DNA of 64,000 bases from assembly GCF_029664245.1 (NCBI RefSeq), contig NZ_JANAIE010000003.1, forward strand, positions 310,001 through 374,000, given 5' to 3'. Numbering within the stretch: the stretch's first letter is position 1; every line of letters starts with the position of its first letter. The notes beneath the pieces are model-generated. The model made no database searches. It was not told the origin of the DNA and saw only the letters and a program-made list of their open reading frames with translations. This document shows, one piece after another, positions 11,280 to 39,570 of the stretch. A program made the translations under genes and the position numbers. This DNA is from Profundicola chukchiensis. GTDB taxonomy: Bacteria > Bacteroidota > Bacteroidia > Flavobacteriales > Weeksellaceae.

Positions 11280-11537
11280 TTATTTTGTAGTTGAATCTGG
11301 GGGATAGTTTATATAAATATTTTGAGGTTTTACGTCACTAGACAGAGCCCATACTAAAGAAATAATCCAACCTACGACAGACCAACCTACCAAGGTGTTT
11401 AAAGCAAAAATAGCCAACTTATTATGCTTATTTTTATAAAAACCAATGATAGCCGGTAGGAAATACATAAAAATGGCAATTCCAATAAGTAAGAAGGCTA
11501 ACATCAATGAAAAAACATTTGAATCTATAAGCTCCAT
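11280..11537 (-). CDS. Superinfection-immunity-family small membrane protein
   Basis: An 85-residue protein with two hydrophobic helices (about 8-32 and 42-68). The second carries the family signature LNTLVGWSVVGWIISLVWAL, as in the Imm_superinfect family named after the phage T4 Imm protein. In bacteria such proteins are widespread, and a protective role against phage DNA entry is not shown. The gene stands alone between the Rrf2 gene and rnr, with no phage genes nearby. The family call is firm; the function is open. Confidence 0.78.
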   Translation of the reverse strand: MELIDSNVFSLMLAFLLIGIAIFMYFLPAIIGFYKNKHNKLAIFALNTLVGWSVVGWIISLVWALSSDVKPQNIYINYPPDSTTK

Positions 11538-18394: not shown

Positions 18395-18424
18395 TCTTCA
18401 TTAGATTTAATTAGAATTAATTAC

Positions 18425-18459
18425 AAAGACCCATTTCTTCATTGAGATGGGTCTTTTTT
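18425..18459 (+). terminator. Intrinsic terminator after the GLUG-repeat gene
   Basis: AAAGACCCAT pairs with ATGGGTCTTT around a 12-base loop and is followed by a T run (18454-18459). Confidence 0.88.
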
Positions 18460-18460
18460 C

Positions 18461-18620
18461 GATGTAGTTCAAAAGTGATTTAATAAACGTTTAAAGTTGT
18501 TTAACCAAAAAAGTTCAACTCGAAACGTCATTACGCACTTGATGCGGAATCTGTCGCATTGAAGGTGGTTTAAAAGTGGCTTTAAAATAGTTCAAAAGTA
18601 GTTTAATGGTAGTTTAAAAA
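18461..18620. repeat. Cassette-1 spacer: GTTTAA-rich repeats with CCGCA palindrome copy
   Basis: Degenerate 11-base units of the type GTTTAAAAGTA/GTTTAATGGTA surround one copy (18521-18560) of a short palindromic element built on ATTMCGCACTTGATGCGGAAT. In this copy the left arm reads ATTACGCA, so the stem has a mismatch. Related blocks precede the other four cassettes. Confidence 0.75.
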
Positions 18621-18788
18621 GGCTTTATTAATACTTTTAAACATATTGTAAATTTATAATTTTGAATTGCTTTAGTTGATGATTCAAGTGAAAATGAGAG
18701 TAGTTGTTAATAACTTTACTTGTTCTTATCAAAATAAATTTGGTTTTAGATTTTTGTTGTATTAATAACAATTTAAAATTTTATTTTT
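18621..18788 (+). promoter_or_regulatory. Conserved cassette leader 1
   Basis: This is the first of five closely similar leaders, each starting near a g-c/tctTTATTAATAC block and ending at the small-peptide ATG. It holds TAATTTTG at 18657-18664 and TAAATTTG at 18735-18742, both exact matches to the Bacteroidetes -7 element. The second is conserved in all five leaders. One ttttaga heptamer follows it, then the invariant AATAACAATTTAAAATTTTA before the start codon. Confidence 0.7.
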
Positions 18789-19034
18789 ATGAAAAATCTT
18801 TTATTTGGAGCAGCAATGCTCATGGGAACATTTGCTTTTGGCAATTATGAATTTATTGAATCTAAATTAATTGACTTAGAAGAAGATTTTATTTTAAAGG
18901 GATGTCCACTTGTTAGAATAGACTATACTTGTTGTTATGAATATGTAGAAATGTGTGGCGAACATCCATCTGGAGAATTACTAATGTTTATGGAAGAAAT
19001 ATATTGTGGTGACGATGCCAGTAATAATAACTAA
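18789..19034 (+). CDS. Small secreted cysteine-rich protein, cassette 1
   Basis: An 81-residue protein. The signal peptide MKNLLFGAAMLMGTFAFG is almost identical, at DNA level too, to those of the other cassettes, while the mature part is unrelated apart from its cysteines. It holds six (KGCPLV, YTCCYEY, EMCGE, IYCGDD), so disulfides or cysteine-based modification are possible. No named family is recognised. It sits under the conserved leader and 37 bases before a GLPGLI gene. Unlike cassettes 2-4, no hairpin lies between the two genes. Confidence 0.72.
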   Translation: MKNLLFGAAMLMGTFAFGNYEFIESKLIDLEEDFILKGCPLVRIDYTCCYEYVEMCGEHPSGELLMFMEEIYCGDDASNNN

Positions 19035-19071
19035 ATAATAATCTACTATCATTCTTTACTAATCTTATAAT

Positions 19072-19857
19072 ATGCAATGTAAAAAGACAGCAATAACATA
19101 CTTATTATTAATAGTTTCATCAATAATGTTTTCACAAACATTTACCTATGAATATACATATAAATTGGATTCTACAGATTTGAATCGTATTAGTCAAGAT
19201 GTGTTAAATTTAGAAATAAATAACTCATATTCTTTATTTTATAGCATAAATAGATTAAAAAGAAATAATTATGCAAAAGCTTTAGAAACCGAAATAGAAA
19301 ATAACACACTTAACTTAAAGAGTGCTCCAAATCCTGGAGTTCATTGGAGTATTAAAAATGACTCTTCTCGGGAATCAATAATGGTATATGAGGATTATTC
19401 TATCTATAAGTATAAATATTCCGATCATATTAATTTGGATTGGAAACTTCAAGATTCTACTAAATTTTATGATCATTTAAAACTTCATAAAGCTACTACC
19501 AGTTTCAGAGGTAGAGATTATATTGCGTGGTATACATTAGAAATTCCTTTGTCCTATGGCCCTTATAAGTTTTATGGCTTGCCTGGTTTGATAGTTGAAA
19601 TTTATGATGAGAATAAAAACCATCATTTCAAAATGGTTGAAACATCAAAAATAAAATTAGATGAAAATTATTTTTCAGAATTCAAATTAATTTCTAAAGA
19701 TGATTTCAAAGAATTTTTTGACAAATATGAGTTAAATCCTATGTCATTAATTCCAGAAACAGAGGGTATTAGAATCCCAGAAAATCAAAAGAAAATTCAT
19801 AAGGAAAGAATGGAAGCTAGAAAAGCTAGAAGAAATAATTTTATAGAGTTAAGGTAA
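19072..19857 (+). CDS. GLPGLI-family secreted protein, cassette 1
   Basis: A 261-residue GLPGLI-family protein (first noted as a paralogous set in Porphyromonas). It has a signal peptide (ITYLLLIVSSIMFSQ) and the family core: KATTSFRGRDYIAWYT (about 141-156), then the ending FYGLPGLIVEIYDENKN (about 168-184). The C-terminus is basic and ends NNFIELR. The family is secreted or periplasmic with no proven function. It follows the small secreted protein of cassette 1 and is probably co-transcribed with it. Confidence 0.85.
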   Translation: MQCKKTAITYLLLIVSSIMFSQTFTYEYTYKLDSTDLNRISQDVLNLEINNSYSLFYSINRLKRNNYAKALETEIENNTLNLKSAPNPGVHWSIKNDSSRESIMVYEDYSIYKYKYSDHINLDWKLQDSTKFYDHLKLHKATTSFRGRDYIAWYTLEIPLSYGPYKFYGLPGLIVEIYDENKNHHFKMVETSKIKLDENYFSEFKLISKDDFKEFFDKYELNPMSLIPETEGIRIPENQKKIHKERMEARKARRNNFIELR

Positions 19858-20000
19858 TTTGTATTTAATGGTTTAATAATAGTTTAAAGTTGTTTAACCA
19901 AAAAAGTTCAATTCGAAGTGTCATTCCGCACTTGATGCGGAATCTAATTTATCAAGTGGCTTAAAAATAGTTTAAAGATGGTTTAATGGTAGTTTAAACA
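19858..20000. repeat. Cassette-2 spacer repeats
   Basis: GTTTAA-type repeats with one palindromic element at 19914-19944 (perfect 8-base arms ATTCCGCA/TGCGGAAT). The arrangement and much of the sequence match the spacer before cassette 1. Confidence 0.75.
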
Positions 20001-20189
20001 GACTTTATTAATACTTTTAATCATATTATAAATTCATAATTTTACATTGCTTTAGTTGATAATTCAAGTGAAAATAAGCAGAATTGTTAATAACTTTTCT
20101 TGTTTTAAAGAAAATAAATTTGGTTTTAGATTTTAGATTTTAGATTTTAGATTTTTGTTTTCATAATAACAATTTAAAATTTTATTTTT
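20001..20189 (+). promoter_or_regulatory. Conserved cassette leader 2 with four ttttaga heptamers
   Basis: It is closely similar to leader 1 along its length. TAAATTTG is at 20115-20122 and is followed by four tandem ttttaga heptamers (20124-20151), then the invariant A/T-rich ribosome-binding stretch up to the ATG. Heptamer number is the main length difference between leaders. Confidence 0.7.
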
Positions 20190-20447
20190 ATGAAAAATCT
20201 TTTATTTGGAGCTTTATGTATGCTCTTGGGGACTTTTGCTTTTGCTAATACTAATGAGGTAAAAGAAATTAATACCATTCAGACTAATCTTAAATTTGAA
20301 ACTGTTCAAGAATATAATGGCTGGTGTGAAATTAGGATTTATCGTGGAAATGAACTTATTTATTATTCGTATGCACCAGCAGAAAGTGAAGCAGCTTGTG
20401 AATTAAGGTACAAATTGAAGTATTTTGAATATGCATATGGAGGTTAA
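20190..20447 (+). CDS. Small secreted WCEI-type protein, cassette 2
   Basis: An 85-residue protein with the shared signal peptide (MKNLLFGALCMLLGTFAFA, cleavage predicted after AFA). The mature part contains NGWCEIRIYRGNEL and a second cysteine in AACELRYK about 28 residues later. It is recognisably related to the cassette-3 protein (same WCEI, SY and AC/R spacing) but not to those of cassettes 1, 4 and 5. One intramolecular disulfide is plausible. The family is not known to me. A strong hairpin lies directly behind it. Confidence 0.72.
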   Translation: MKNLLFGALCMLLGTFAFANTNEVKEINTIQTNLKFETVQEYNGWCEIRIYRGNELIYYSYAPAESEAACELRYKLKYFEYAYGG

Positions 20448-20460
20448 AAAATGTTTTTTT

Positions 20461-20488
20461 AAACATAAGGCTTAAAAGCCTTATGTTT
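20461..20488 (+). terminator. Hairpin between small gene and GLPGLI genes, cassette 2
   Basis: A 28-base near-perfect palindrome with arms AAACATAAGGCTT and AAGCCTTATGTTT. It is not followed by a long T run, so it may act as a 3'-end stabiliser or partial attenuator for the small-gene transcript rather than a full terminator. Confidence 0.7.
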
Positions 20489-20507
20489 AAATCTAAAATT
20501 AATACTT

Positions 20508-21182
20508 ATGAAATTAAAAATTATTCTTTTAAGTTTTGTCTTGTTTTTGGTAAGTAATGAACTACATGCTCAACTAACATTTCATGCTTATTATAAATTC
20601 ACAGAAGTAATACCAAATGCAAATGAACCAAGACAATACAATGCTTCTATTCTAAAAAATAAGGAATATGTACTCTATACGCATAAGGTTGCGCCAAGCC
20701 AGATGGAAAAAGAAAACTTATCAAATTCAAAAAGGTTGGTTGATGATTCTGACTTCGAGTATAAAATATTCATGACCCAAGACAAGGTCCATATACATGA
20801 TTTGCTTCAGGGCAAAGACTATTACTTTGAAGAAGAAGCTCCTGAAATTACCTATGAATTCATAGACGAAACCAAAGAATTTTGGAATAAAACTGCTCAT
20901 AAAGCAACTACACATTTCCGTGGAAGAGATTATGTGATATGGTACGAGAAAAACGATGTGCACATAAGTCCATGGAAATTTCAGGGAATACCTGGAGTTG
21001 TGCTAGAAGCTTATTCAACGGATAATATTTTTCGCTGGAGTTTAGAAAGAATAGATACGGAAATGAAAAAAATAAAATCTCCATTTGCTGAAAATCTAGA
21101 ATTTTTATCTTGTAAGGAATATTCTCGTCTAACAGCAAAAGATAAAAATCAACTAGAAATTAATTTTGAATGCAAAGATTAA
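20508..21182 (+). CDS. GLPGLI-like secreted protein with divergent motif, cassette 2
   Basis: A 224-residue relative of the GLPGLI family with signal peptide MKLKIILLSFVLFLVSNELHAQ. The family core reads KATTHFRGRDYVIWYE (about 133-148). The naming motif has changed to GIPGVVLEAYSTD (about 162-174). The same divergence occurs in the matching gene of cassette 3, so the short form is a distinct subtype. The next GLPGLI gene starts 2 bases after its stop. Function unknown. Confidence 0.8.
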   Translation: MKLKIILLSFVLFLVSNELHAQLTFHAYYKFTEVIPNANEPRQYNASILKNKEYVLYTHKVAPSQMEKENLSNSKRLVDDSDFEYKIFMTQDKVHIHDLLQGKDYYFEEEAPEITYEFIDETKEFWNKTAHKATTHFRGRDYVIWYEKNDVHISPWKFQGIPGVVLEAYSTDNIFRWSLERIDTEMKKIKSPFAENLEFLSCKEYSRLTAKDKNQLEINFECKD

Positions 21183-21184
21183 TT

Positions 21185-22039
21185 ATGAGGAGATTAAGTT
21201 GTATTTTTATTTTCTTACTGTTTTTCACCAATTTGAAAGCACAACAATATGAGGTGATTTATGAGCTTTATATTCAGGCGAGTACAGAGAAAGATAGTTT
21301 GATTACTGAAGAAACAAGTTTAGTGATTTTTCCTGAACAACAAATTTCGTTTTTCTCGAATCTTGGCGAACAAAAGAGAAAAGATTTTTTTAAACAAATT
21401 AGAGAAGAAGCTAAAATTAATCCTGATATCAGTCATGTTGATTATAGTGCAGTTCCTGAATATGTTTTCGCCTACAGTGTTTTAAAGAATTTAAAAACAA
21501 ATGAACATAGCTTTTATGAAGAGGTTTTGGGCGATACATATAATTATGGGTTTGATCTCAACTTAAATTGGAATATTACGGGCGATAAAAAACAAATCCT
21601 AGATTATGCCTGTCAAAAGGCGACTCTGCATTTCGGTGGAAGACAATGGACAGCTTACTTTACGCAAGAAATTCCATTTTCTGATGGACCTTATAAATTT
21701 CATGGATTGCCAGGTTTAATTTTGGAAATTTATTCAGAAGACGGAGATTATTCATTTTCGGCAAAAGGAATTCAGACCTTAAAAACAGAGTTTATAGCGC
21801 CTAAATCCTTAAAAATGCGAAAAGCTAGTTTAGATAAGTACAAAGAAAAATTAGCTGAAAAACCTTCGATTGCCTTTGTAAATAAGATGCAAAGCTCTGG
21901 TTTGACTGGTAGTGTTAGTTATAACGGAAAACCAATAAGTAACAGTCAAGTTGCTAACACCTATGATAAAGAAGTAAAGGAATGGATGAAAAATCATAAT
22001 AATCCTATCGAAAAAGATATGATTTGGTTGGATAAGTGA
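21185..22039 (+). CDS. GLPGLI-family protein, long form, cassette 2
   Basis: I start at the ATG at 21185, which gives the signal peptide MRRLSCIFIFLLFFTNLKAQ; an ATG at 21170 lies inside the preceding gene. The protein has 284 residues. The core is KATLHFGGRQWTAYFTQEIP and the motif is HGLPGLILEIYSEDGD. The last 25 residues are identical to those of the cassette-3 long form, and the DNA identity continues past the stop codon. It is probably translationally coupled to the short form 2 bases upstream. Confidence 0.85.
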   Translation: MRRLSCIFIFLLFFTNLKAQQYEVIYELYIQASTEKDSLITEETSLVIFPEQQISFFSNLGEQKRKDFFKQIREEAKINPDISHVDYSAVPEYVFAYSVLKNLKTNEHSFYEEVLGDTYNYGFDLNLNWNITGDKKQILDYACQKATLHFGGRQWTAYFTQEIPFSDGPYKFHGLPGLILEIYSEDGDYSFSAKGIQTLKTEFIAPKSLKMRKASLDKYKEKLAEKPSIAFVNKMQSSGLTGSVSYNGKPISNSQVANTYDKEVKEWMKNHNNPIEKDMIWLDK

Positions 22040-22291
22040 TTATGAAGCAGCTTATCGGTTGTTTAAAGGTAGTTTAAATAAAATATTGGGCACGAAGCGT
22101 CATTCCGCACTCGATGCGGAATCTAATTTATGAAGTGGTTTAATGGAAGTTTAAAGTAGTTTAAAAGTAGTTCAAAAGTGGTTTAAACGAAAATACTGGG
22201 CCCGAAGCGTCATTCCGCACTGGATGCGGAATCTAGCGCATTGAAGGTGGCTTAAAAATAGTTTAAAGATGGTTTAATGGTAATTTAAACA
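22040..22291. repeat. Cassette-3 spacer repeats with two palindromic elements
   Basis: GTTTAA-type repeats with two copies of the palindromic element, at 22091-22123 and 22201-22233, each with perfect ATTCCGCA/TGCGGAAT arms. The first 40 bases continue the duplication shared with the region after 24464. Confidence 0.8.
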
Positions 22292-22480
22292 GACTTTATT
22301 AATACTTTTAATCATATTATAAATTCATGATTTTGGATTACTTTAGTTGATTATTCAAACAAAAATAAGCAGAATTGTTAATAACTTTTCTTGTTTTAAA
22401 GAAAATAAATTTGGTTTTAGATTTTAGATTTTAGATTTTAGATTTTTGTTGACATAATAACAATTTAAAATTTTATTTTT
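22292..22480 (+). promoter_or_regulatory. Conserved cassette leader 3 with four ttttaga heptamers
   Basis: TAAATTTG is at 22406-22413, followed by four ttttaga heptamers (22415-22442) and the invariant stretch before the ATG. It is nearly identical to leader 2. Confidence 0.7.
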
Positions 22481-22750
22481 ATGAAAAATCTTTTATTTGG
22501 AGCTGTAATGCTCTTGGGAACATTTGCTTTTGCTTCAACTATTGAAACACATGGCGACGATATGAACACGCAAAATTACGAATTTCAATTTATGGAGGAC
22601 ATAGTTGTAGGCGGTTGGTGCGAAATATTTATTTACAACTCGAACGGTGAAGTTGTCGATTATTCATATACTTGGGAAATTTCAGAATATGCTTGTAAAA
22701 AACGAGCAAAGGATATGCTTGATGATTTTGTTATAGCACCCGTAGATTAA
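22481..22750 (+). CDS. Small secreted WCEI-type protein, cassette 3
   Basis: An 89-residue paralogue of the cassette-2 small protein. The shared signal peptide MKNLLFGAVMLLGTFAFA is followed by a mature part with GGWCEIFIYNSNGE, a SYTWE segment and a second cysteine in YACKKRAKD. The spacing of W-C-E-I and the second cysteine matches cassette 2, while other residues differ freely. It is followed by a 16-base-pair hairpin and a short-form then a long-form GLPGLI gene, so cassettes 2 and 3 are duplicates in gene order. Confidence 0.72.
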   Translation: MKNLLFGAVMLLGTFAFASTIETHGDDMNTQNYEFQFMEDIVVGGWCEIFIYNSNGEVVDYSYTWEISEYACKKRAKDMLDDFVIAPVD

Positions 22751-22760
22751 TTGAACTTTA

Positions 22761-22799
22761 AAAGAATTTATCTAAAATATTAATTTAGATAAATTCTTT
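22761..22799 (+). terminator. Hairpin between small gene and GLPGLI genes, cassette 3
   Basis: A perfect 16-base-pair stem (AAAGAATTTATCTAAA with its complement at 22784-22799) and a 7-base loop. The sequence differs completely from the hairpin in cassette 2, but the position is the same: directly after the small gene. Confidence 0.72.
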
Positions 22800-22814
22800 A
22801 TTATTACTATTATT

Positions 22815-23549
22815 ATGTATAAATTATTATATTCTATTTTCTTTGGTTGTTTTTTGTTGACCGTAGGTCTTACACAAGAAGCCATAGTTGCAAATTATAA
22901 ATTCTATGACAAATTACCCATTTTTAATGAACCCAAAATTTATGATGCACAACTCATTGTAATAAATGATGATGAGTCATATTATACCACAATCTTGAAT
23001 ACGACGGATAATTTGAATGCGAATTTTAATGATCAGATTGTTTTTGAAAATCAGGATTTTGTGTATCAACTTTTAAAACAAAATAAAAAATTTTATACAC
23101 ATGATTTATTGCAAAGGAAAAAATACTTTTTTGAGGAAAACATACCAGAAATAGTATATAAGTATATGGATGATACAAAACTATTAAATAATATTATCCT
23201 TCATAAAGCCTTTACTACATTTAGAGGTAGAGAATACATTTTGTGGTTTGAAAAAGGAGATATCAATATAAGCCCTTGGAAGTTTTCTGGAATTAACGGT
23301 ATTGTGCATGAGGCTTACTCCACGGATGGTAAAGCCAGATGGGAATTAGTAGATATAGCACAAACTAAAGAAAAATTTAAAAATCCTTTCCCAAAAGAAG
23401 CATTGTTTTTGCCTTATGAACTTTATCCTGAAAAAGCTTATGCAATACCAGAAGCATTGAAAAGAAAATTAGCTAAGAATCCTAATAATAGGTTAACTGA
23501 ACAAGAAAGAAATCAATTGGAAATTGAATTTGATTTTGAGAAAAAATAG
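22815..23549 (+). CDS. GLPGLI-like secreted protein with divergent motif, cassette 3
   Basis: A 244-residue paralogue of the short form in cassette 2, with signal peptide LLYSIFFGCFLLTVGLTQ. The core is KAFTTFRGREYILWFEKGD and the motif has become GINGIVHEAYSTDG, so the GLP of the family motif is lost. Both short forms share NISPWKF or HISPWKF before this site. The C-terminus is charged. A small hairpin (ACCAATAAATTGGT, 23569-23582) lies between it and the long form. Function unknown. Confidence 0.78.
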   Translation: MYKLLYSIFFGCFLLTVGLTQEAIVANYKFYDKLPIFNEPKIYDAQLIVINDDESYYTTILNTTDNLNANFNDQIVFENQDFVYQLLKQNKKFYTHDLLQRKKYFFEENIPEIVYKYMDDTKLLNNIILHKAFTTFRGREYILWFEKGDINISPWKFSGINGIVHEAYSTDGKARWELVDIAQTKEKFKNPFPKEALFLPYELYPEKAYAIPEALKRKLAKNPNNRLTEQERNQLEIEFDFEKK

Positions 23550-23597
23550 TTATTATAGCAACCTTAAACCAATAAATTGGTCTATTAATAAATTTAA

Positions 23598-24464
23598 ATG
23601 ATAAAATTCATTCTTACAAAATATATTTTTGTTCTAAATACATTGATTCTATCTTCAGTTTTATCTGCGCAGACTTACGAGGTAGTTTATGATCTAAAGT
23701 ATCAACCGAATATTGATGAAGATAGTTTAGTGGTGGAAGAAATGAGTTTGTTATTCAATGTTGCTCAGCAAAAATCTATATTTGAGAATTTAGGTAAACA
23801 GAAAATTAAAGAATTTTATAACAATCTTCGACAGAGTGCACAATTAGGCAATAGTATTCATTATGACAATTCTTTGATGCCGACTTATAATTTTGCCTTT
23901 AGTGTTTCAAAAGATTTTGAAAAACAAAAATATACCTTTTACGAGCCTGTGTTGGGTGAAACCTATACTTATGATTTTAAAGAACCCATTCATTGGGAGG
24001 TTTTAAAATCAACTAAAGAGGTGATGGGTTACCAATGTCAAGAAGCACAACTTAATTTTGGAGGAAGAACATGGCTTGCCTATTTCTCTCATGAAATTCC
24101 ATTTTCTGATGGACCTTATAAATTTTATGGATTACCAGGATTAATACTTGAAATTCAATCCACAGATGGTGATTATTCTTTTGAAGCAACCTCAATTTAT
24201 ACGTTAAATAAAGATATTATTCAACCTGATGCTATTGGGTTCAAAAAGGATAAATTAGATCAATATAAAGAGAGATTAGCAGAAAAACCATCTATTGCGC
24301 TAAAAAATAAATTAGAAAGCAATAACATTTCGGTAAGCGTTAAATTTGACGGTAAAGATGTTAGTGGAAAATCTTTTGAAGACACGTATGATAAAGAAGT
24401 AAAGGAATGGATGAAAAATCATAATAATCCTATCGAAAAAGATATGATTTGGTTGGATAAGTGA
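23598..24464 (+). CDS. GLPGLI-family protein, long form, cassette 3
   Basis: A 288-residue paralogue of the long form in cassette 2. The signal peptide region is IFVLNTLILSSVLSAQ. The core QLNFGGRTWLAYFSHEIPFSDG and the motif YGLPGLILEIQSTDGD are intact. The final 25 residues and about 40 bases beyond the stop are identical or nearly identical to the end of cassette 2, which points to recent duplication or gene conversion. Confidence 0.85.
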   Translation: MIKFILTKYIFVLNTLILSSVLSAQTYEVVYDLKYQPNIDEDSLVVEEMSLLFNVAQQKSIFENLGKQKIKEFYNNLRQSAQLGNSIHYDNSLMPTYNFAFSVSKDFEKQKYTFYEPVLGETYTYDFKEPIHWEVLKSTKEVMGYQCQEAQLNFGGRTWLAYFSHEIPFSDGPYKFYGLPGLILEIQSTDGDYSFEATSIYTLNKDIIQPDAIGFKKDKLDQYKERLAEKPSIALKNKLESNNISVSVKFDGKDVSGKSFEDTYDKEVKEWMKNHNNPIEKDMIWLDK

Positions 24465-24715
24465 TTATGAAGCGGCTTATCGGTTGTTTAAAGGTAGTTT
24501 AAATGTGGTTTAATGGTAGTTTAAAATTGTTTAAATAAAATATTGGGCACGAAGCGTCATTCCGCACTCGATGCGGAATCTAATTTATGAAGTAGCTTAA
24601 AAGTAGTTTAGTTATAGTTAAAATTTGTTTAACCAAAAATGTTCATCTCGAAACGTCATTACGCACTTGATGCGGAAGCTAGCGTATTAGAGTTGTTTTA
24701 AAGGATGTTTAAAAA
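24465..24715. repeat. Cassette-4 spacer repeats with two palindromic elements
   Basis: GTTTAA-type repeats with palindromic elements at 24549-24580 (perfect arms) and 24648-24680 (left arm ATTACGCA, as in the cassette-1 copy). Bases 24465-24503 belong to the duplication shared with 22040-22078. Confidence 0.8.
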
Positions 24716-24890
24716 GTCTTTATTAATACGATCATAAGGCTTATAAATTCATAATTTTGCATTATTTTAGTTGATGATTCAAACGAAAATAGATGTGATT
24801 GTTAATAACTTTTATTGTTTTAATCAAAATAAATTTGGTTTTAGATTTTAGATTTTTGTTGACATAATAACAATTTAAAATTTTATTTTT
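24716..24890 (+). promoter_or_regulatory. Conserved cassette leader 4 with two ttttaga heptamers
   Basis: TAATTTTG lies near 24757-24764 and TAAATTTG at 24830-24837, followed by two ttttaga heptamers (24839-24852) and the invariant stretch before the ATG. Confidence 0.7.
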
Positions 24891-25316
24891 ATGAAAAATT
24901 TATTATTTGGAGTATTAGTATTGCTCATGGGAACTTTTGCATTTGCAAACAGTATGGAAACTATCAATTTAATTAACAAAGAACCTTTAGTTGAAATATA
25001 TTCAACAGGATCCGAAACAATTTTTTATCATGAATCAAAACTGGAAGTTTTTGATAAGGATGTAACTTTTATCGTTGGCTTTGATATCAATGACATGGTT
25101 TCATCATTAAGTATATCGGATGAGCTTTCTAAAGATGAGCTATCCCAAGTAACAAATATCTTACTTACATCTAACTGTCTAACTACATGTACAAGAGCAA
25201 ATGGATGTTCAGATAAAAGCACAAGTGTTGGTAGTTTAATTTGTGTTGGTGAATGCGTAGTTGATTGCACACAAGCATTATTGGAAGAAATGACGGAAGA
25301 TACGAATCCACAATAA
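24891..25316 (+). CDS. Secreted cysteine-rich protein, cassette 4
   Basis: A 141-residue protein, the longest of the set. The shared signal peptide (MKNLLFGVLVLLMGTFAFA) is followed by an acidic middle part of about 75 residues and a C-terminal cysteine cluster: SNCLTTCTRANGCSD, then LICVGECVVDCTQ, six cysteines in about 33 residues. This looks like a propeptide followed by a compact cysteine-rich core. An intrinsic terminator follows, and the next genes encode an ABC ATPase and a membrane protein, so a transport or immunity link is plausible but unproven. Family unknown. Confidence 0.72.
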   Translation: MKNLLFGVLVLLMGTFAFANSMETINLINKEPLVEIYSTGSETIFYHESKLEVFDKDVTFIVGFDINDMVSSLSISDELSKDELSQVTNILLTSNCLTTCTRANGCSDKSTSVGSLICVGECVVDCTQALLEEMTEDTNPQ

Positions 25317-25369: not shown

Positions 25370-25957
25370 ATGGATTCATTAGTAGTTATTAAGAAGTTTG
25401 GATATGAAAGTGCTTTATTTGAAAATTTAGAGTTATCCTTCGATAATAGTAGTAAAATTGGTATTGTAGGGAATAATGGCGTGGGCAAAACCACATTGTT
25501 AAAATTAATAAGCCAGCAAATAACAGCAAGTGGCGTGAGCGTAGTTGCAAATCCTGATATAGGATATTTTGATATTAATTATACATTAAATAAAGAATAT
25601 TCTTTCCATGATAACTGTAAATTATATTCAAGGTATTTACAAAAGGATTTGATAGAAGAATATGTTCAGAAATTTGCATTTAATAAACATAAGAATCTTA
25701 AAATCAATAAACTATCAAAAGGAAATTTAGTTAAAGCTCACTTAATATTTTTACTGTCTCTAGAAAAATCTTTTTACTTTTGGGATGAGCCTTTTAGTAA
25801 TTTAGATGAAAAATCAAAAACTGTTTTTAAACTAATTCTACAGGAAGCAAGTTTTGGTTTTTTATTAATTTCACATGATTTTCAAATGATTACATCATGT
25901 TGTAATAAAATATATGAAATAAAAAATAAAACCCTTATCCCAGTAAATAATTTTTAG
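25370..25957 (+). CDS. ABC transporter ATP-binding protein
   Basis: A 195-residue ABC ATPase, on the short side. Walker A is GIVGNNGVGKTTLL (about 31-44), the signature LSKGNLVKAHL (about 118-128), Walker B YFWDEPFSNLD (about 138-148) and the H-loop LLISHDF (about 165-171). The Q-loop region is weak. It pairs with the membrane protein whose ATG follows its stop directly. The layout (secreted cysteine-rich protein, ATPase, membrane protein) resembles peptide-export or self-protection transporters; this is inference. Confidence 0.88.
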   Translation: MDSLVVIKKFGYESALFENLELSFDNSSKIGIVGNNGVGKTTLLKLISQQITASGVSVVANPDIGYFDINYTLNKEYSFHDNCKLYSRYLQKDLIEEYVQKFAFNKHKNLKINKLSKGNLVKAHLIFLLSLEKSFYFWDEPFSNLDEKSKTVFKLILQEASFGFLLISHDFQMITSCCNKIYEIKNKTLIPVNNF

Positions 25958-26617
25958 ATGACAACAGAGTTCACTTTATTTCTAAAAAGCAAATACAACC
26001 TATTCACTATAATTATAGTGCAAATTTTGATGCTAAGTGTCTATTATAGCTACTTTATGATGATGGAAGTTCCAGAAACTACTAATTTATTTGATTCTGG
26101 TATTGTAATATTTTTTTCATTTCTTTTCTATCTATTGATTTATAGGAAAATATTTATTCAACAACACATAAAATTTATTTCATTAAATATAGACCGATAC
26201 AAGTCTATACTCCTGAAGAAAATAGGGGTTTCCATAATTTATTTTGTTATTAGTTCAATTCTTGTATTGATAGCACTTAGTTTTATTTTTGAAAAACCAT
26301 CTTGGTTGTCTGGTCTATTTCAAATCAAATATATTTTATTTTTTTTGTTATTGAATCTCATGTGTTCCTTAATTTCTTTTGCTATTACCTCTTTTAATAC
26401 ATCAATTTGGATGGTTTTAATTATTTTAAGCTTGGTTTTATTTGAAGATAATATTCGTCTTATGATAGAAAATGCAACGATTACGAATTTATTTTTTAAA
26501 ACTAATTACAAAAATCTTTTTAGCGAAGCTTCTATTTATGCTGTAATAACTACAGTTATCTATATATTAATTCCATTTTTTATTATCTTGAAGAAAAACT
26601 ATAAACATGAAAACTAA
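25958..26617 (+). CDS. Hydrophobic membrane protein, probable ABC permease partner
   Basis: A 219-residue protein with about six predicted membrane helices (first IIIVQILMLSVYYSYF, last YAVITTVIYILIPFFIIL) and no recognisable catalytic domain. It begins directly after the ABC ATPase stop and its end overlaps the next GLPGLI gene by 11 bases, so it is firmly in the operon. Position and topology make it the likely transmembrane half of an ABC-2-like transporter. No sequence family is recognised. Confidence 0.75.
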   Translation: MTTEFTLFLKSKYNLFTIIIVQILMLSVYYSYFMMMEVPETTNLFDSGIVIFFSFLFYLLIYRKIFIQQHIKFISLNIDRYKSILLKKIGVSIIYFVISSILVLIALSFIFEKPSWLSGLFQIKYILFFLLLNLMCSLISFAITSFNTSIWMVLIILSLVLFEDNIRLMIENATITNLFFKTNYKNLFSEASIYAVITTVIYILIPFFIILKKNYKHEN

Positions 26618-27398
26618 AATCACAATATGTATTCTACTATTTGGTGTATTTGTGAATGCCCAAATTCGAGTACAATATGAATTAAATTATATAATGGATT
26701 CTACAACTAACTACGTAGAACAAGAAGTATTTAACCTTGATATAGAACAAAACAAATCCTTATTTTATCCTACAGCTTTGGCGAGCATGGACTCTTTAGT
26801 AAACGCCGATAATTATTTATATAACAATAATGTAGTAGAACCAAAACTTGATTATATGATCGAAAAAAACAATGATGAATTGTTTTTTGACGAAGCAATA
26901 GCTTTAAATATATTTCATATTAAAGAACCAAGAATATTAAAATGGGAAATTATTCCTAATTCCATCGATAGCATCGAACAGTTTAAAGTTCAAAAAGCAG
27001 AAACTCGATTCGGAGGTAGGAAATGGATTGCTTATTATACCAGCGAAATTCCCTATTCAGAGGGTCCTTATAAATTTAAAGGCCTACCAGGTTTAATTCT
27101 AAAAGTGCATGACCAAAATAAAGATTATATATTCGATCTTATTGCAATTAAACAAATTAAAGAAATCTTTGAATTTACCTTCCACGAAAAAATTGGTGTA
27201 AGAAAAGTCGATATGGATTTTTTGGAGTATAAAAAATTTCTCTCTGAAATTGAAACCAACCCAAAAGTTATAGCTTATCTAATGACAGGAAACTATAATG
27301 TAGAACTCCCAACTGAACTTAGCCAACAATTTGTAGAACGATATAAAAAAGAGAAAATAAAAAAAAATAACCCTATTGAGTTAAGTCTCGATGAATAA
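26607..27398 (+). CDS. GLPGLI-family protein, cassette 4
   Basis: A 263-residue GLPGLI protein with signal peptide MKTKITICILLFGVFVNAQ. The core AETRFGGRKWIAYYTSEIPYSEGPYKF is split around residue 130-155 and is followed by KGLPGLILKVHDQNKDY. The C-terminus ends NNPIELSLDE. It overlaps the membrane-protein gene by 11 bases and is followed, after a broken GLPGLI remnant, by the outer-membrane protein gene. Confidence 0.86.
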   Translation: MKTKITICILLFGVFVNAQIRVQYELNYIMDSTTNYVEQEVFNLDIEQNKSLFYPTALASMDSLVNADNYLYNNNVVEPKLDYMIEKNNDELFFDEAIALNIFHIKEPRILKWEIIPNSIDSIEQFKVQKAETRFGGRKWIAYYTSEIPYSEGPYKFKGLPGLILKVHDQNKDYIFDLIAIKQIKEIFEFTFHEKIGVRKVDMDFLEYKKFLSEIETNPKVIAYLMTGNYNVELPTELSQQFVERYKKEKIKKNNPIELSLDE

Positions 27399-27616: not shown

Positions 27617-30250
27617 ATGAAAAACCATCTTTGCTTTTTATTCATTGTTCTTTTTTCAGCAGTACCAGCTCAAAGCCTTATTCAAGGAAAGCTTTTAAAT
27701 TCTGAACAACAACCTATTTCTGGCGTAAGTGTTAGCCTATCTCCAGAAGACTCGGATGATATTTTAGCCTATGCCATTTCTGATAAGAATGGAGGTTTTA
27801 GTATAGAAGTTAATTCAGAAATTTCGACCTTAAAAATCAGCATTAGATCCATGGATTATGCCATGGTTTCTGAGGTTATTGAAAATAAAAATCAAACCTT
27901 AAACTTCTATTTAACCGAACAAGCTATCGAACTTAAAGATGTGGTCGTAAAGGCGAGTCCTATTCGACAACGTGGAGATACCTTAAACTACTCTGTAAAC
28001 ACTTTTGCCAAGGAACACGATAGAAGTATTGCCGACGTTATTGCGCGTATGCCGGGAATAGAAATTCAGAGCAATGGACAAATTCTCTATCAAGGCAAAC
28101 CTATCAACAAATACTATATCGACAATCTAGACATGTTAGAAGGTAGGTATAATCTTGCTAACAAGAATCTAGCACATAAGGAAGTGGCAAGTGTTCAGGT
28201 ATATGAAAACCATCAGCCGATCAAAATATTAGACAGTTTGGTTTATTCAGATCGAGCGGCTTTGAATATTCAACTTAAAAATAGTTTTACTTTTACAGGA
28301 CAAGCAGAACTAGGTTTGGGCGCTTCTCCTCTACTTTGGGATGCAAATATTACACCTATGCTATTTGCAAGAAATAAGCAGATGCTCACCACCTACCAAA
28401 CCAATAATACAGGAAATAATGTAGCAGAACAGTTTACTAATTTTAGCTTATCTTCTTTGTTAAATCCAGTGCGAATCAATTTAGAAAAAAAAGATTGGGT
28501 TGGTATTCAAAGTTTGTCAACACCCAATTTTCCAGACAAACGTTGGTTAGATAATAATATCCATGCAACTTCTACCAATTTCCTATATAAATTGAAGAAG
28601 GATTATGAAGTAAAATTTAATATTTCTTATCTCAATGATTATCAAAAATTAAAAGGGGCAACAACCACACGATTTTATACTGCCAACGATACCATTCAAC
28701 TCAACGAAACTCAATTCAACCAATTGTATTTTAATTCGTTAGATGCCAATCTTATTCTACATAAAAATACCAAAAAGAATTATTTAAAAAATACCTTAGA
28801 ATTGCAAGGATTTTGGGATGGAGAGCGTGGCGGCATCTTAAATAATAACGAAAATATCGGTCAGCAAGTAGAAAATCATTACTTTAAACTAGCTAACACC
28901 TTAACCAGCATTATTCCTATAGGAAAACAGCTGATGAACCTTAATTCGTATGTAGGTATTGACAAAACGCCTCAGAATTTGCGCATTGATCCAGGACAGT
29001 TTATTAATTTACTCAACCAAAATATGACGTATGATCTAACTACCCAAAATGTAGCACATCAACAATTTGTCACCACCAACTCACTTGGATTTAATAAAGG
29101 CATAAAACATTTTACTTTTTCACCCAGCATTGGTTTTCAGTTGATGAAACAAAGCTTGAATTCTTCTATATTTGTGGATGAAACCGAACTTACAGAATCT
29201 GTATTTAATAACGATTTAGATTGGACACAGACCAAAGCTTTTGCGCAACTCCTTACAGAATATAAAAAGAAAAAATGGCGTTTGAGTTTAATGACACCTG
29301 TTATTTACTCGAACTATAACATATCAGATGATCGCAATGAACTAGGTCAAAACATTAATCAACTAAGCTTTCAGCCAAGCTTTAATGTTTATTATGAACC
29401 AAGCGCTTTCTGGAAATTTAATATCGGAAGCAATTACAGCGAAAGTTTAGGCGATATTCACCAATTGCATTATGCTTATTTGATGAATAATTATAGAAAT
29501 ATTCAAAAAATTTCAGCACCTCTTCCAGAAAGTCAAATCATGAGTTATAGAGTGGGTATGGACTATAAAAACCCGATTAAATCCTTATTTTGGAATATAC
29601 AATACAGTCATTCCAATTTAAATAACAATCTATTGTATGCTACCCAAATTCAAGATAATGGTGCAACAGAAATAACTGCTATACAAGAAGATAATAAACA
29701 ATTAAGCCATCAAGTTTCTTCTCGCATTAGTAAATATTTTGGTAGATTAGGTGCCAACCTAAGCTTAAAAGGAAGTTTAGGTTATAATTTCTCTGAACAA
29801 GTTATCAATCAAATTCTAACTGATGTTAAATCTCAAAACATGGGATTCAACGCCAAAATAGAAAAGGATATTTCGGAAGCATTAAATGTAGAAATCAACT
29901 CGAATTGGACATTTTTTAAGAATAGCTTACAAAATCAATCCAATGCGTGGATTACTCGACAAGAACATCAATTTAAATTAAATGCGTATCCAAAAGAAAA
30001 TCAATTCGTTGGACTGACCACAGAATGGTCTAGAAACGATGTTTTAAAGTCAAATAAGGATTATTTTTTTGCTGACTTACTATATCGCTACACTTGGAAA
30101 AAAGCGAAGTTGGATTTTGAACTTGAGTGGAACAACATCTTCAACAGCAAAGATTATAGTATTTTGAGTATAGACACTTACTCGTATGTAGAAACCAATT
30201 TTAGATTAAGACCCTCGCAGGTTTTGTTGAAGGTGAGATTTTCGCTATAA
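27617..30250 (+). CDS. TonB-receptor-like outer-membrane beta-barrel with carboxypeptidase-like regulatory domain
   Basis: An 877-residue outer-membrane protein. A signal peptide (HLCFLFIVLFSAVPAQS) is followed by a CarboxypepD_reg-like domain (about 22-110, from IQGKLLNSEQQPISGVSVSL), a plug-like region (SIADVIARMPGIEI to NHQPIKIL, about 138-205) and a long barrel ending in a C-terminal phenylalanine-containing strand (VLLKVRFSL). No clear TonB box is visible. Proteins of this type are regular neighbours of GLPGLI genes in Bacteroidetes, so the two probably work together at the outer membrane. The substrate is unknown. Confidence 0.83.
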   Translation: MKNHLCFLFIVLFSAVPAQSLIQGKLLNSEQQPISGVSVSLSPEDSDDILAYAISDKNGGFSIEVNSEISTLKISIRSMDYAMVSEVIENKNQTLNFYLTEQAIELKDVVVKASPIRQRGDTLNYSVNTFAKEHDRSIADVIARMPGIEIQSNGQILYQGKPINKYYIDNLDMLEGRYNLANKNLAHKEVASVQVYENHQPIKILDSLVYSDRAALNIQLKNSFTFTGQAELGLGASPLLWDANITPMLFARNKQMLTTYQTNNTGNNVAEQFTNFSLSSLLNPVRINLEKKDWVGIQSLSTPNFPDKRWLDNNIHATSTNFLYKLKKDYEVKFNISYLNDYQKLKGATTTRFYTANDTIQLNETQFNQLYFNSLDANLILHKNTKKNYLKNTLELQGFWDGERGGILNNNENIGQQVENHYFKLANTLTSIIPIGKQLMNLNSYVGIDKTPQNLRIDPGQFINLLNQNMTYDLTTQNVAHQQFVTTNSLGFNKGIKHFTFSPSIGFQLMKQSLNSSIFVDETELTESVFNNDLDWTQTKAFAQLLTEYKKKKWRLSLMTPVIYSNYNISDDRNELGQNINQLSFQPSFNVYYEPSAFWKFNIGSNYSESLGDIHQLHYAYLMNNYRNIQKISAPLPESQIMSYRVGMDYKNPIKSLFWNIQYSHSNLNNNLLYATQIQDNGATEITAIQEDNKQLSHQVSSRISKYFGRLGANLSLKGSLGYNFSEQVINQILTDVKSQNMGFNAKIEKDISEALNVEINSNWTFFKNSLQNQSNAWITRQEHQFKLNAYPKENQFVGLTTEWSRNDVLKSNKDYFFADLLYRYTWKKAKLDFELEWNNIFNSKDYSILSIDTYSYVETNFRLRPSQVLLKVRFSL

Positions 30251-30383
30251 AGTAGGTTAATGGGGTTTAATGGTGGTTTAATAGTTGCTTAATGTAGTTT
30301 AACCAAAAAAGTTCATCTCGAAGCGTCATTCCGCACTTGATGCGGAATCTAATTTATGAAGTGGTTTAAAAGTAGTTTAAAAA
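30251..30383. repeat. Cassette-5 spacer repeats
   Basis: GTTTAA-type repeats with one palindromic element at 30318-30350 (perfect arms). This is the last copy in the window. Confidence 0.75.
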
Positions 30384-30558
30384 GGCTTTATTAATACGAT
30401 TAAGCATATTATAAATTCATAATTTTATATTGTTTTAGTTGATGATTCAAGTGAAAATGAGAGTAGTTTTTAATAGCTTTACTTGTTTTTAACAAAATAA
30501 ATTTGGTTTTAGATTTTAGATTTTTGTTGTATTAATAACAATTTAAAATTTTATTTTT
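30384..30558 (+). promoter_or_regulatory. Conserved cassette leader 5 with two ttttaga heptamers
   Basis: TAAATTTG is at 30498-30505, followed by two ttttaga heptamers (30507-30520) and the invariant stretch. It ends at ATC in place of the usual ATG. Confidence 0.68.
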
Positions 30559-30696
30559 ATCAAAAATCTTTTATTTGGAGCTTTGGTATTGCTCACGGGG
30601 ACTTTTGCTTTTGCAATTAATGATTCTGAAGATTATATCTTTCCAGAAGATCCTATTGAAATTTATAATCTGAATGAGAAAATAATTTTACCTTGA
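30559..30696 (+). pseudogene. Fifth small secreted-protein gene with ATG changed to ATC
   Basis: The reading frame is open for 45 codons and encodes the shared signal (KNLLFGALVLLTGTFAFA) followed by a short acidic tail ending KIILP, with no cysteine. The first codon is ATC (30559-30561) where the other four cassettes have ATG in the same context. The frame stops at 30694-30696, and the TTG start of the next gene overlaps it by 4 bases (TTGA). Either the gene is dead, or it is translated weakly from the non-standard codon and coupled to the GLPGLI gene. The short cysteine-less tail favours decay. Confidence 0.65.
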
Positions 30697-31370
30697 AGAA
30701 GTTTATATTTTTATTAATAAGTATTTGTTTTTATAATACTTATGCCCAGAATTATGAGGTCACTTACGAAAAAATTGAGTTTGCTACAGTTTCCAAAAAA
30801 GTTAAACAGCATCCAATACTCAATAAAGTGTTTGGCTCAGATATAATTTCATCTTTTGTTATAAACCTTGATCAAGATCAGTCTTATCAATATTTTGAAC
30901 CAATATTATCAAATAATTATAAAGTTTTAGATAATTCAGCAAGAATTTACAAAAATATCTCTGAAAATATTGTTTATATTGAAACTCTAATTCCCAATAC
31001 AATTGTAAGAGATACATTAAATAAATATGATTGGGAATTGATTGAAGATGAAGAATTAAATTTTGAAAATTATAAGTTATTAAAAGCAAAATTTACAAAA
31101 AACTTCATGGAATCGGAGTTAACAGTTTTTGCATGGTATACCAATGATATACCCATTTCTAATGGACCAGAAGAATATAATGGGCTTCCTGGGTTGATTT
31201 TACGAGTTGAAGTATATTTAGAAAATCAATTAAAAACTTCTATCAATGCGAAAAAAGTAAAACTAAAAAAAACTTCCATTGCTAATCCTTTTCTAAATGA
31301 AAAATATAAAATTGTCACCAGAGATGAGAGTGAAAAGTTATTAAGGAATAATTTTAGCGAATTTAAATAA
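30693..31370 (+). CDS. GLPGLI-family protein, cassette 5 (TTG start)
   Basis: A 225-residue GLPGLI protein. The start is TTG within TTGA, overlapping the stop of the broken small gene. It gives a good signal peptide MKKFIFLLISICFYNTYAQ and no ATG lies nearby. The core is degraded (KLLKAKFTKNF then ELTVFAWYTNDIPISNGP), but the motif YNGLPGLILRVEVYLENQ is intact (about 165-182). If the gene depends on coupling to the small reading frame upstream, the ATC change there would also lower its expression. Confidence 0.8.
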   Translation: MKKFIFLLISICFYNTYAQNYEVTYEKIEFATVSKKVKQHPILNKVFGSDIISSFVINLDQDQSYQYFEPILSNNYKVLDNSARIYKNISENIVYIETLIPNTIVRDTLNKYDWELIEDEELNFENYKLLKAKFTKNFMESELTVFAWYTNDIPISNGPEEYNGLPGLILRVEVYLENQLKTSINAKKVKLKKTSIANPFLNEKYKIVTRDESEKLLRNNFSEFK

Positions 31371-31791: not shown

Positions 31792-32568
31792 ATGCATAGT
31801 AAATTCTGCTGGATCGGATTGTTGTTTTTGATGAGTTTTGTTTACTCACAGGATAAAACGTATCAAATAACTTATGAGAACTTTTTTGAATTATCTGAAG
31901 ATGGCTTAGCTTATGAATTTGAGGATAAGGAAACAAGAGATTTTTATCGCGAATTATGGAATAGAAAGAAAGTTTATCATCTTTTAACGGATAAACAAAA
32001 AGGATATTTCAGCCAAGAACATCATTTAGAAGATCAGAAAGTTCTTAATTCATCTGACGGTAGCGTTGTTTCATATGACAATCATGCACCTGATCTTTAT
32101 CTTAACTATACAGAAAAGACTTGGTCTCAACTTACGGATACTAAAAACTTAATAATACAGAACGAATTAGCAAAACCAGCATGGAATATCGACAGAAATG
32201 CGTCTAATGTTCCTCAGTTTTTTAGTTTTAAAACGATGAAAGCTGAAATTAATGATGGTAGCGGAATGATTATTACAGCCTACTATACACCAGAAATTCC
32301 CATATCTGCAGGACCAGAAAAATATTATGGTTTACCTGGTTTAATTCTTTATTTAGAAATGCGACTAGAAGAGGATGACCCAGAGTCAGCCGTTATAGCT
32401 AATATTTGGCAAGCAAAACTTGTAGAGGAAGTAAAACAAAGTATTCCATCTTTAAAAATAAAAAGAAAAACTACGTTTATGACTGAGATGGATTATCAAA
32501 ATTTATTAGAAGCTAATATGCAAAAACAACAAGAATATAATTCATCTGGCGTTGAGAAGATTGATTAA
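31792..32568 (+). CDS. GLPGLI-family protein, last of the array
   Basis: A 258-residue GLPGLI protein with signal peptide KFCWIGLLFLMSFVYSQ. The core is diverged (MKAEINDGSGMIITAYYTPEIPISAGP split near residue 150-175), with the motif YYGLPGLILYLEMRLEED (about 181-198). It lacks the conserved leader and small gene in front, so it may be expressed from the cassette-5 promoter or from a weak local one. An intrinsic terminator follows it. Confidence 0.83.
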   Translation: MHSKFCWIGLLFLMSFVYSQDKTYQITYENFFELSEDGLAYEFEDKETRDFYRELWNRKKVYHLLTDKQKGYFSQEHHLEDQKVLNSSDGSVVSYDNHAPDLYLNYTEKTWSQLTDTKNLIIQNELAKPAWNIDRNASNVPQFFSFKTMKAEINDGSGMIITAYYTPEIPISAGPEKYYGLPGLILYLEMRLEEDDPESAVIANIWQAKLVEEVKQSIPSLKIKRKTTFMTEMDYQNLLEANMQKQQEYNSSGVEKID

Positions 32569-32783: not shown

Positions 32784-33782
32784 ATGTCATTATCCGCAAT
32801 CAACTTGCAGGAACTCAATGAAACCATTAACAACGAAAGTCAAATCATGCATCGCTTGTCCGATGAGATGAAAAAAGTCATCTTCGGTCAGGATAAGATG
32901 GTAGAAAGCCTTTTGATTGGTTTGTTAAGTAATGGTCATATTCTGTTGGAAGGTGTACCAGGACTTGCTAAAACTTTAGCCATTAAAACTTTGGCAGAAG
33001 CAGTACATGGTCATTTTTCGCGTATTCAGTTTACGCCTGATTTGTTACCCGCTGATGTGGTAGGAACCATGATTTATAACGTAAAGGAAAATGATTTTAC
33101 GATTAAAAAGGGTCCTATTTTCGCCAATTTTGTGTTAGCAGATGAGATCAACCGTTCGCCAGCTAAGGTGCAGTCAGCTCTGTTAGAAGCCATGCAAGAA
33201 AAGCAAGTTACGATTGGTGACGAAACATTTTTCTTAGAAGAACCATTTTTGGTCATGGCTACGCAAAACCCCGTAGAACAAGAAGGAACTTATCCTTTGC
33301 CCGAAGCTCAGGTGGATAGGTTTATGTTGAAAACTGTGATTACTTACCCAGATTATGAATCTGAGAGACAAATTATGCGTCATAATATCAATCAAACTTT
33401 TCCTAAGATTGAACCCGTAATGCATATTCACGAAATTTTAAAAGCGAGAGAAGTTGTGAAAAAAGTCTATATGGACGAAAAAATTGAACAATATATTCTC
33501 GATATTTCTGCTGCAACAAGATATCCTCAGGATTTTCAATTACCCGATCTACAATCCTATTTGAGGTTTGGAACTTCACCACGAGGTAGCATTAATTTAG
33601 CAAAAGCAGCTCGTGTGCATGCTTTCTTAAGAAAGAGAGCCTTTGTGATACCAGAAGATATTAGAGCCATTGTACACGACGTAATGCGCCACAGAATCGG
33701 TATTACCTATGAAGCAGAAGCCGATAATGTAACCTCAGACCAAATACTGGATAGGATTGTGAATAAAATACCTGTACCTTAG
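32784..33782 (+). CDS. MoxR-family AAA+ ATPase
   Basis: A 332-residue MoxR ATPase, thought to act as a chaperone with von Willebrand A-domain proteins. Walker A is LLEGVPGLAKTLAIKTLA (about 56-73), Walker B VLADEINRSPAKVQSALLEAM (about 113-133), sensor 1 MATQNPVEQEGTYPLPEAQ and the C-terminal lid SPRGSINLAKAARVHAF (about 267-283). It is the first gene of the Bat operon (DUF58, BatA, BatB, BatD follow), although a separate four-helix-bundle gene and repeat-rich DNA split it from the rest. Confidence 0.93.
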   Translation: MSLSAINLQELNETINNESQIMHRLSDEMKKVIFGQDKMVESLLIGLLSNGHILLEGVPGLAKTLAIKTLAEAVHGHFSRIQFTPDLLPADVVGTMIYNVKENDFTIKKGPIFANFVLADEINRSPAKVQSALLEAMQEKQVTIGDETFFLEEPFLVMATQNPVEQEGTYPLPEAQVDRFMLKTVITYPDYESERQIMRHNINQTFPKIEPVMHIHEILKAREVVKKVYMDEKIEQYILDISAATRYPQDFQLPDLQSYLRFGTSPRGSINLAKAARVHAFLRKRAFVIPEDIRAIVHDVMRHRIGITYEAEADNVTSDQILDRIVNKIPVP

Positions 33783-34372: not shown

Positions 34373-34429
34373 AATACTAAAAACCATAAACTAACAACAC
34401 TACACCCTAAACCATATACCCTACACCAT

Positions 34430-38341: not shown

Positions 38342-38362
38342 AGCCTTATTTTTGTGGGGAAT

Positions 38363-39567: not shown

Positions 39568-39570
39568 TAC

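What the first reader, a model, noticed from the sequence alone, without database searches (positions are those of the whole stretch)
18789..25316. Invariant signal peptide, hypervariable cysteine-bearing mature part
Four small genes share almost the same first 18-19 codons at DNA level, yet the mature parts fall into three unrelated kinds (six-cysteine, WCEI two-cysteine, six-cysteine cluster at the end). Conserved leader with variable core is typical of toxins, bacteriocins, RiPP precursors and antigenic surface proteins. Cysteine patterns suggest disulfide-stabilised secreted peptides.
Basis: partly seen in the sequence, partly recalled or inferred. Interest (0 to 1): 0.75.

Follow-up and report, generated by a model that had tools for sequence, protein, structure and literature searches.

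The report
Secreted cysteine peptides paired with GLPGLI proteins
A group of Bacteroidota carries many gene cassettes in which a small secreted, cysteine-bearing protein is followed by its own matching partner of the common but unexplained GLPGLI family, while the cassettes of one genome share a single copied start (promoter plus signal peptide); this gives a first concrete handle on what GLPGLI proteins do.

Summary
In detail: four small genes (18789-25316) share promoter DNA and signal peptide but not the mature part. Corrections: p1 has five mature cysteines, not six, and p5 (30559-30696) is a fifth, broken copy. The genome (Weeksellaceae-type Bacteroidota) has further copies.

The larger pattern is a cassette system. 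Peptides located by peptide sequence alone, in many genera and one other family, were followed by a GLPGLI gene (TIGR01200) in 37 of 37 assessable cases. A tree of those GLPGLI proteins sorts by peptide type, not species (6 label changes, minimum 5, shuffled mean 24.5). AlphaFold and Foldseek give GLPGLI a LolA/VioE/PNGF-II-bowl-like cavity fold; about half the cassettes examined also carry a SusC/TonB-receptor-like barrel.

"Hypervariable" is wrong. Each core type is discrete and conserved between species (R-type orthologues: dN 0.16, dS 2.55). What is unusual is that promoter plus leader are homogenised within a genome while core plus GLPGLI stay distinct; seen in three genomes of two genera.

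Most likely: Sec-exported disulfide microproteins, each handled in the envelope by a cognate LolA-like GLPGLI partner. Pairing and leader homogenisation are well supported; the role (antagonism with immunity, or outer-membrane delivery) is inferred. I found no published description.

The parts
18618..18788 (+). shared upstream block (promoter/5' UTR) of p1
   Evidence: alignment of six copies; self-BLAST
18789..19034 (+). p1, secreted S-type peptide (five mature Cys)
   Evidence: orthologue G001b in L032; same motif class in L196, L197, L205
19072..19857 (+). GLPGLI protein paired with p1
   Evidence: Pfam Porph_ging 6.2e-10; TIGR01200 over cut-off; falls in the S-type clade 100/98
20000..20189 (+). 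shared upstream block of p2
   Evidence: 92% identical to the block of p3
20124..20155 (+). 4.6 copies of heptamer TTTTAGA in the upstream block of p2
20190..20447 (+). p2, secreted W-type (WCEI) peptide
20508..21182 (+). GLPGLI protein 1 of the p2 cassette
   Evidence: TIGR01200 2.1e-21; W-type clade
21170..22039 (+). GLPGLI protein 2 of the p2 cassette; structure modelled
   Evidence: Porph_ging 3.9e-13; AF2 pLDDT 93
22290..22480 (+). shared upstream block of p3
22415..22446 (+). 4.6 copies of heptamer TTTTAGA in the upstream block of p3
22481..22750 (+). p3, secreted W-type (WCEI) peptide; structure modelled
22815..23549 (+). GLPGLI protein 1 of the p3 cassette
   Evidence: TIGR01200 5.4e-17; W-type clade
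23598..24464 (+). GLPGLI protein 2 of the p3 cassette; its last ~90 bp are nearly identical to those of 21170-22039
24700..24890 (+). shared upstream block of p4
24891..25316 (+). p4, secreted peptide with six Cys at the C-terminal end
   Evidence: no core homologue found
25370..25957 (+). ABC transporter ATPase
   Evidence: NCBIfam hits, generic ABC
25958..26617 (+). probable ABC permease (membrane protein)
   Evidence: position and hydrophobic sequence; no family hit
26607..27398 (+). GLPGLI protein of the p4 cassette
   Evidence: TIGR01200 3.9e-40
27617..30250 (+). outer-membrane barrel with CarboxypepD_reg domain, SusC/TonB-receptor-like
   Evidence: CarbopepD_reg_2 5.8e-08; weak SusC match of the family profile, E 0.0093
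30378..30558 (+). shared upstream block of p5
30559..30696 (+). p5, decayed copy: start ATG changed to ATC, leader intact, short core, no Cys
30693..31370 (+). GLPGLI protein after p5
   Evidence: TIGR01200 5.7e-29
31792..32568 (+). GLPGLI protein without a peptide
   Evidence: TIGR01200 2.3e-23

Best explanation
The array is a set of peptide-plus-GLPGLI cassettes. Each cassette makes a ~60-residue (p4: ~120) protein that enters the periplasm through Sec and is probably disulfide-bonded there. Directly behind it is a periplasmic GLPGLI protein (often two) with a LolA-like cavity fold that belongs to a subfamily specific for that peptide type; about half the cassettes examined also carry a SusC/TonB-receptor-like barrel. 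SHOWN: one leader with several core types; constant GLPGLI neighbour; co-inheritance of core type with GLPGLI subfamily; purifying selection on cores; homogenised promoter plus leader within a genome. INFERRED: the peptide physically binds its own GLPGLI, which shields it and delivers it to or across the outer membrane (or neutralises it), and the shared leader block is kept uniform by gene conversion or recombination between copies while core and partner stay linked.
For: 37 of 37 assessable peptide hits found by peptide profile alone have GLPGLI as the next same-strand gene (24/24, 13/13, two of them in another family of the order); double-glycine-leader peptides of the same bacterial family have it in 2 of 29. 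The GLPGLI tree needs 6 label changes for six peptide types (minimum 5; shuffled mean 24.5; 0/200), with S 100/98, R 100/97, Y 99/94, T 100/99 and W 9 of 10 in one clade at 100/100; the first tree with cruder labels gave 9 against 20.6. Leader against core: p2/p3 pS 0.17 against 0.77; G001a/b 0.07 against 0.60; in G037 two different core types share ~195 bp of near-identical upstream DNA plus leader. Fold: AF2 pLDDT 93; Foldseek to PNGF-II-type PNGases 4.2e-09, VioE 3.9e-05, LolA 4.8e-04. Conserved cores.
Against: No binding, secretion or disulfide data. GLPGLI genes also occur widely without a peptide (31792-32568 here; most top hits, seen), so GLPGLI has other roles too. The barrel is absent from many cassettes, including R-type ones. 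In p4 an ABC transporter lies between peptide and GLPGLI. Several copies have lost the start codon (p5 ATC, L025 AAG, G001a/b ATA) or carry stops (L029, L128), so some are dead. Foldseek TM-scores are modest (best about 0.48 by query), and the peptide model has low leader confidence.
Confidence: 0.6

Rival explanations
1. Bacteriocin-like toxin with immunity: the peptide is released to harm related strains and the GLPGLI protein in the producer's periplasm neutralises it.
For: One-to-one cognate pairing and co-inheritance; patchy distribution of each type (W and R profiles each in 13 of about 299 genomes of the family); tandem arrays and gene death; an ABC transporter in the p4 cassette.
Against: No double-glycine leader; mature proteins mostly acidic, median net charge -4; cores conserved between species, with no sign of arms-race change; no PADLOC match except generic ATPases; no obvious route across the outer membrane in cassettes without barrel or ABC genes.
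Confidence: 0.3
2. Nutrient scavenging: the peptide binds a metal or other ligand outside the cell, is taken back through the TonB-type barrel, and GLPGLI receives it in the periplasm.
For: SusC-like barrel next to many cassettes; acidic and cysteine-bearing peptides; LolA-like cavity in GLPGLI.
Against: Barrel missing in about half of the cassettes; no common metal-binding motif across types; cysteines mostly in even numbers, as expected for disulfides.
Confidence: 0.12
3. Ordinary tandem duplicates of unremarkable secreted proteins; the shared leader only reflects recent duplication of 5' segments and the GLPGLI neighbour is a passive operon partner.
For: Block duplication or gene conversion clearly occurs, and a dispersed repeat with 11-bp GTTTAA units and a palindrome lies upstream of the cassettes in the window.
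Against: Does not explain GLPGLI subfamilies tracking peptide type over many genera or 37 of 37 adjacency.
Confidence: 0.12
4. Antigenic variation: copies without a start codon are silent stores and recombination through the shared leader brings new cores under an active start.
For: Copies with intact leader and open frame but lost ATG: p5 ATC, L025 AAG, G001a/b ATA.
Against: p1-p4 each have their own upstream block and ATG; no single expression site; in G001 both copies found lack ATG; core types stay tied to their own GLPGLI.
Confidence: 0.04

Closest known systems
GLPGLI family (TIGR01200 / Pfam Porph_ging PF09697)
   Same: The proteins behind the peptides exceed the TIGR01200 cut-off.
   Different: The family has no known function and I found no description of a peptide partner; here a subset is tied to secreted peptides and splits by peptide type.
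N-terminal bowl-like domain of PNGase F-II type enzymes (PDB 4r4x, 4r4z, 7zgn)
   Same: Same fold and detectable sequence similarity.
   Different: There it is fused to a glycosidase and is described as of unknown function (PMC9522356); here it is a stand-alone protein.
LolA/LolB lipoprotein carriers and VioE
   Same: Similar half-barrel with a cavity by Foldseek.
   Different: Low sequence identity (6-12%) and modest TM-scores; no evidence for lipoprotein cargo.
Chryseobacterium double-glycine 'bacteriocin-like protein' leader (NF047798)
   Same: Invariant leader before varied cysteine-rich cores; occasionally lies before a GLPGLI gene (L085, L165, L167).
   Different: GG leader of the kind used for ABC export, not a Sec signal; GLPGLI neighbour in only 2 of 29.
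SusC/TonB-dependent outer-membrane receptors
   Same: CarboxypepD_reg domain and plug-like region; weak SusC profile match.
   Different: No canonical Pfam plug hit; no SusD partner seen.

Membership tests
GLPGLI (TIGR01200) | score over the curated cut-off | tested here: met
   all eight GLPGLI genes of the window region are over the cut-off
GLPGLI (TIGR01200) | GLPGLI motif | tested here: met
   GLPGLI or close variants (GIPGVV, GINGIV) in all aligned members
RiPP precursor | modifying enzyme encoded nearby | tested here: not met
   neighbours are GLPGLI, barrel, ABC or housekeeping-like genes; not every neighbour was scanned by HMM
RiPP precursor | modified core residues | not testable with these tools
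   needs mass spectrometry
Class II (double-glycine) bacteriocin | GG-type leader | tested here: not met
   leader is a Sec-type signal peptide ending AFA or SAK; no hit to TIGR01847 or NF047798 for p1-p4
Class II (double-glycine) bacteriocin | peptidase-containing ABC exporter nearby | tested here: not met
   the ABC ATPase 25370-25957 is 195 aa, with no peptidase domain among the hits shown
Bacteriocin in the wide sense | acts on related strains; immunity by partner | not testable with these tools
   needs assay
Antigenic variation with silent cassettes | one expression site and promoterless stores | tested here: not met
   p1-p4 each have the upstream block and ATG
SusC/TonB-dependent receptor (27617-30250) | N-terminal CarboxypepD_reg extension | tested here: met
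SusC/TonB-dependent receptor (27617-30250) | plug and barrel domains | tested here: inconclusive
   weak SusC match E 0.0093 and OMP_b-brl_3 in 1 of 8 members
LolA-like carrier | half-barrel fold with cavity | tested here: inconclusive
   Foldseek E 4.8e-04, TM 0.35/0.52

The most novel reading that the evidence does not exclude
GLPGLI is a large family of envelope proteins of which many act as dedicated partners (chaperone, carrier or immunity) of secreted disulfide microproteins, forming a modular peptide-partner system of Flavobacteriales in which a common export/promoter module is kept uniform within each genome by gene conversion while core-partner pairs are exchanged behind it as units.
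Probability: 0.35. Interest if true: 0.85.

Novelty: new variant of a known kind. Interest (0 to 1): 0.7.

Why it matters
GLPGLI proteins occur in 110 of 120 sampled genomes of the family, often more than ten per genome, yet have no known function. A strict, type-specific pairing with small secreted proteins turns an open question into a direct binding test. The leader block, uniform within a genome while cores stay distinct, is also a clear natural case of 5'-segment homogenisation in bacteria. The group includes Chryseobacterium and Riemerella; in R. anatipestifer PhoP directly controls several GLPGLI genes (PMC9603813).

Tried and rejected
Pfam, NCBIfam and PADLOC gave no family for any Sec-leader peptide tested; weak chance hits, such as signal-peptide-only matches at E about 0.1, were discarded. 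Foldseek of the peptide model found nothing significant; PDB sequence search likewise. Rfam found no RNA in the region. The upstream palindrome ATTCCGCACTYGATGCGGAAT and the 11-bp GTTTAA arrays looked cassette-specific but are a dispersed genome-wide repeat. A general link of GLPGLI with double-glycine bacteriocins was tested and is sporadic (2 of 29). Eight literature searches found no description of the pairing. The named-genome scan gave only three loci.
Full report
OBSERVATION. The window is G000:C43:310001-374000 of a 2.6 Mb genome. The four ORFs are real. Their leaders are 81-91% identical in DNA, against 44-69% for GLPGLI signal peptides of the same array. The shared block extends 240-390 bp from upstream into the leader at 78-92% identity and stops at the end of the signal peptide. 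p1 has five mature cysteines, not six. A fifth copy at 30559-30696 has ATC in place of ATG, a short core and no cysteine.

NEIGHBOURS. p1, p2 and p3 are each followed by one or two GLPGLI genes; p4 is followed by an ABC ATPase, a probable permease, a GLPGLI gene and an outer-membrane barrel. The own genome has 21 GLPGLI matches.

ASSOCIATION. A profile of four own-genus peptides found relatives in other genera, and further profiles found more. In all 37 loci where the next gene could be read, it was GLPGLI on the same strand, usually some 45-110 bp away (24/24; 13/13). Three of these are in the window's own genus, one has only a GLPGLI remnant (L124), and two are in another family of the order (L194, L200). 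As contrast, double-glycine-leader peptides had it in 2 of 29. Other genes of the same loci had it in 15 of 99, a figure inflated because the loci were chosen around cassettes.

PEPTIDE TYPES AND PARTNERS. Cores fall into discrete types: W (WCEI-like; p2, p3), S (cysteine pattern like p1), R (CCRT), T (CCTRT), Y (CxYCV) and V (CGV..TYY). hhalign of R against W aligns only the leader. The tree of the first GLPGLI behind each peptide groups by type: 9 changes against a shuffled mean of 20.6 with the first labels, and 6 against 24.5 (minimum 5) with 43 rows. Caveat: some S labels were assigned from the peptide motif after I had seen the first tree, and V was split from W; four new S members (L195, L196, L197, L205) were labelled from the peptide before the second tree. 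Row L073, left unlabelled, falls with R and T, and its peptide has CCTAT.

NOT HYPERVARIABLE. Orthologues of one type are conserved in the mature part: L074/L120 dN 0.16 dS 2.55; L197/L205 dN 0.19 with saturated dS; own/G002 Y-type dN 0.38 dS 1.44.

LEADER HOMOGENISATION. Within a genome the leader has far lower synonymous difference than the mature part: p2/p3 0.17 against 0.77; G001a/b 0.07 against 0.60; G037 W and R types 0.33 against 0.74, with ~195 bp of upstream DNA almost identical. By core, G001a goes with p2/p3 and G001b with p1, yet the two share their own leader, including an ATA start. The p2 and p3 cassettes are also nearly identical in the last ~90 bp of their second GLPGLI gene and beyond, so the variable stretch (core plus GLPGLI) lies between two conserved ends. 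This fits recombination or gene conversion; I did not run a formal recombination test, leaders are only 19 codons long, and alignments of unrelated cores inflate the mature values.

STRUCTURE. GLPGLI 21170-22039: pLDDT 93; matches the PNGase bowl-like domain (4.2e-09), VioE and LolA. The bowl domain is reported as of unknown function (PMC9522356). p3: hairpin plus helix, core pLDDT 78-88, leader low. Mature peptides are mostly acidic, 22 of 29.

MECHANISM. I favour Sec export, disulfide formation in the periplasm and capture by a cognate LolA-like GLPGLI, then delivery to the outer membrane or neutralisation. Pairing is shown genetically; binding, route and role are inference. Bacteriocin with immunity is the main rival.

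NOVELTY. No family model covers the peptides and I found no paper describing the pairing. The open-access library is incomplete, so prior description elsewhere is possible.

Noticed in passing
window 20124-20155, 22415-22446, 24844-24856, 30512-30524: Heptamer TTTTAGA repeats in the upstream block vary from 1 copy (p1) to 4.6 (p2, p3), a possible slippage-prone (phase-variable) promoter element.
   Followed up: partly
L032 (G001) about 10150-10205 and 11407-11461; L025 about 3262; window 30559: Peptide genes with intact open frames but ATA, AAG or ATC in place of the ATG start: dead copies or non-standard initiation.
   Followed up: partly
window intergenic regions 18395-18788, 19858-20189, 22040-22480, 24465-24890, 30251-30560; genome C21:56-63 kb, C65:110-120 kb, C76:143-148 kb: Dispersed repeat made of 11-bp-phased GTTTAA units and the palindrome ATTCCGCACTYGATGCGGAAT, 32 palindrome hits in the genome, often in clusters.
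   Followed up: partly
L085 2288-2470 and L087 2287-2469; L165; L167: Double-glycine bacteriocin-like peptides directly upstream of a GLPGLI gene.
   Followed up: partly
L033 7700-7885: GG-leader class II bacteriocin-like peptide near ABC transporter genes in G001 (Ap0902).
   Followed up: no
window 32784-41337: moxR/Bat-type operon directly downstream of the array; in Riemerella anatipestifer PhoP controls moxR/bat and several GLPGLI genes (PMC9603813).
   Followed up: no
L030 4036-4410: At the same pgk-moxR locus, G002 has a different nine-cysteine peptide plus one GLPGLI gene: the locus looks like a site of exchanged content.
   Followed up: partly
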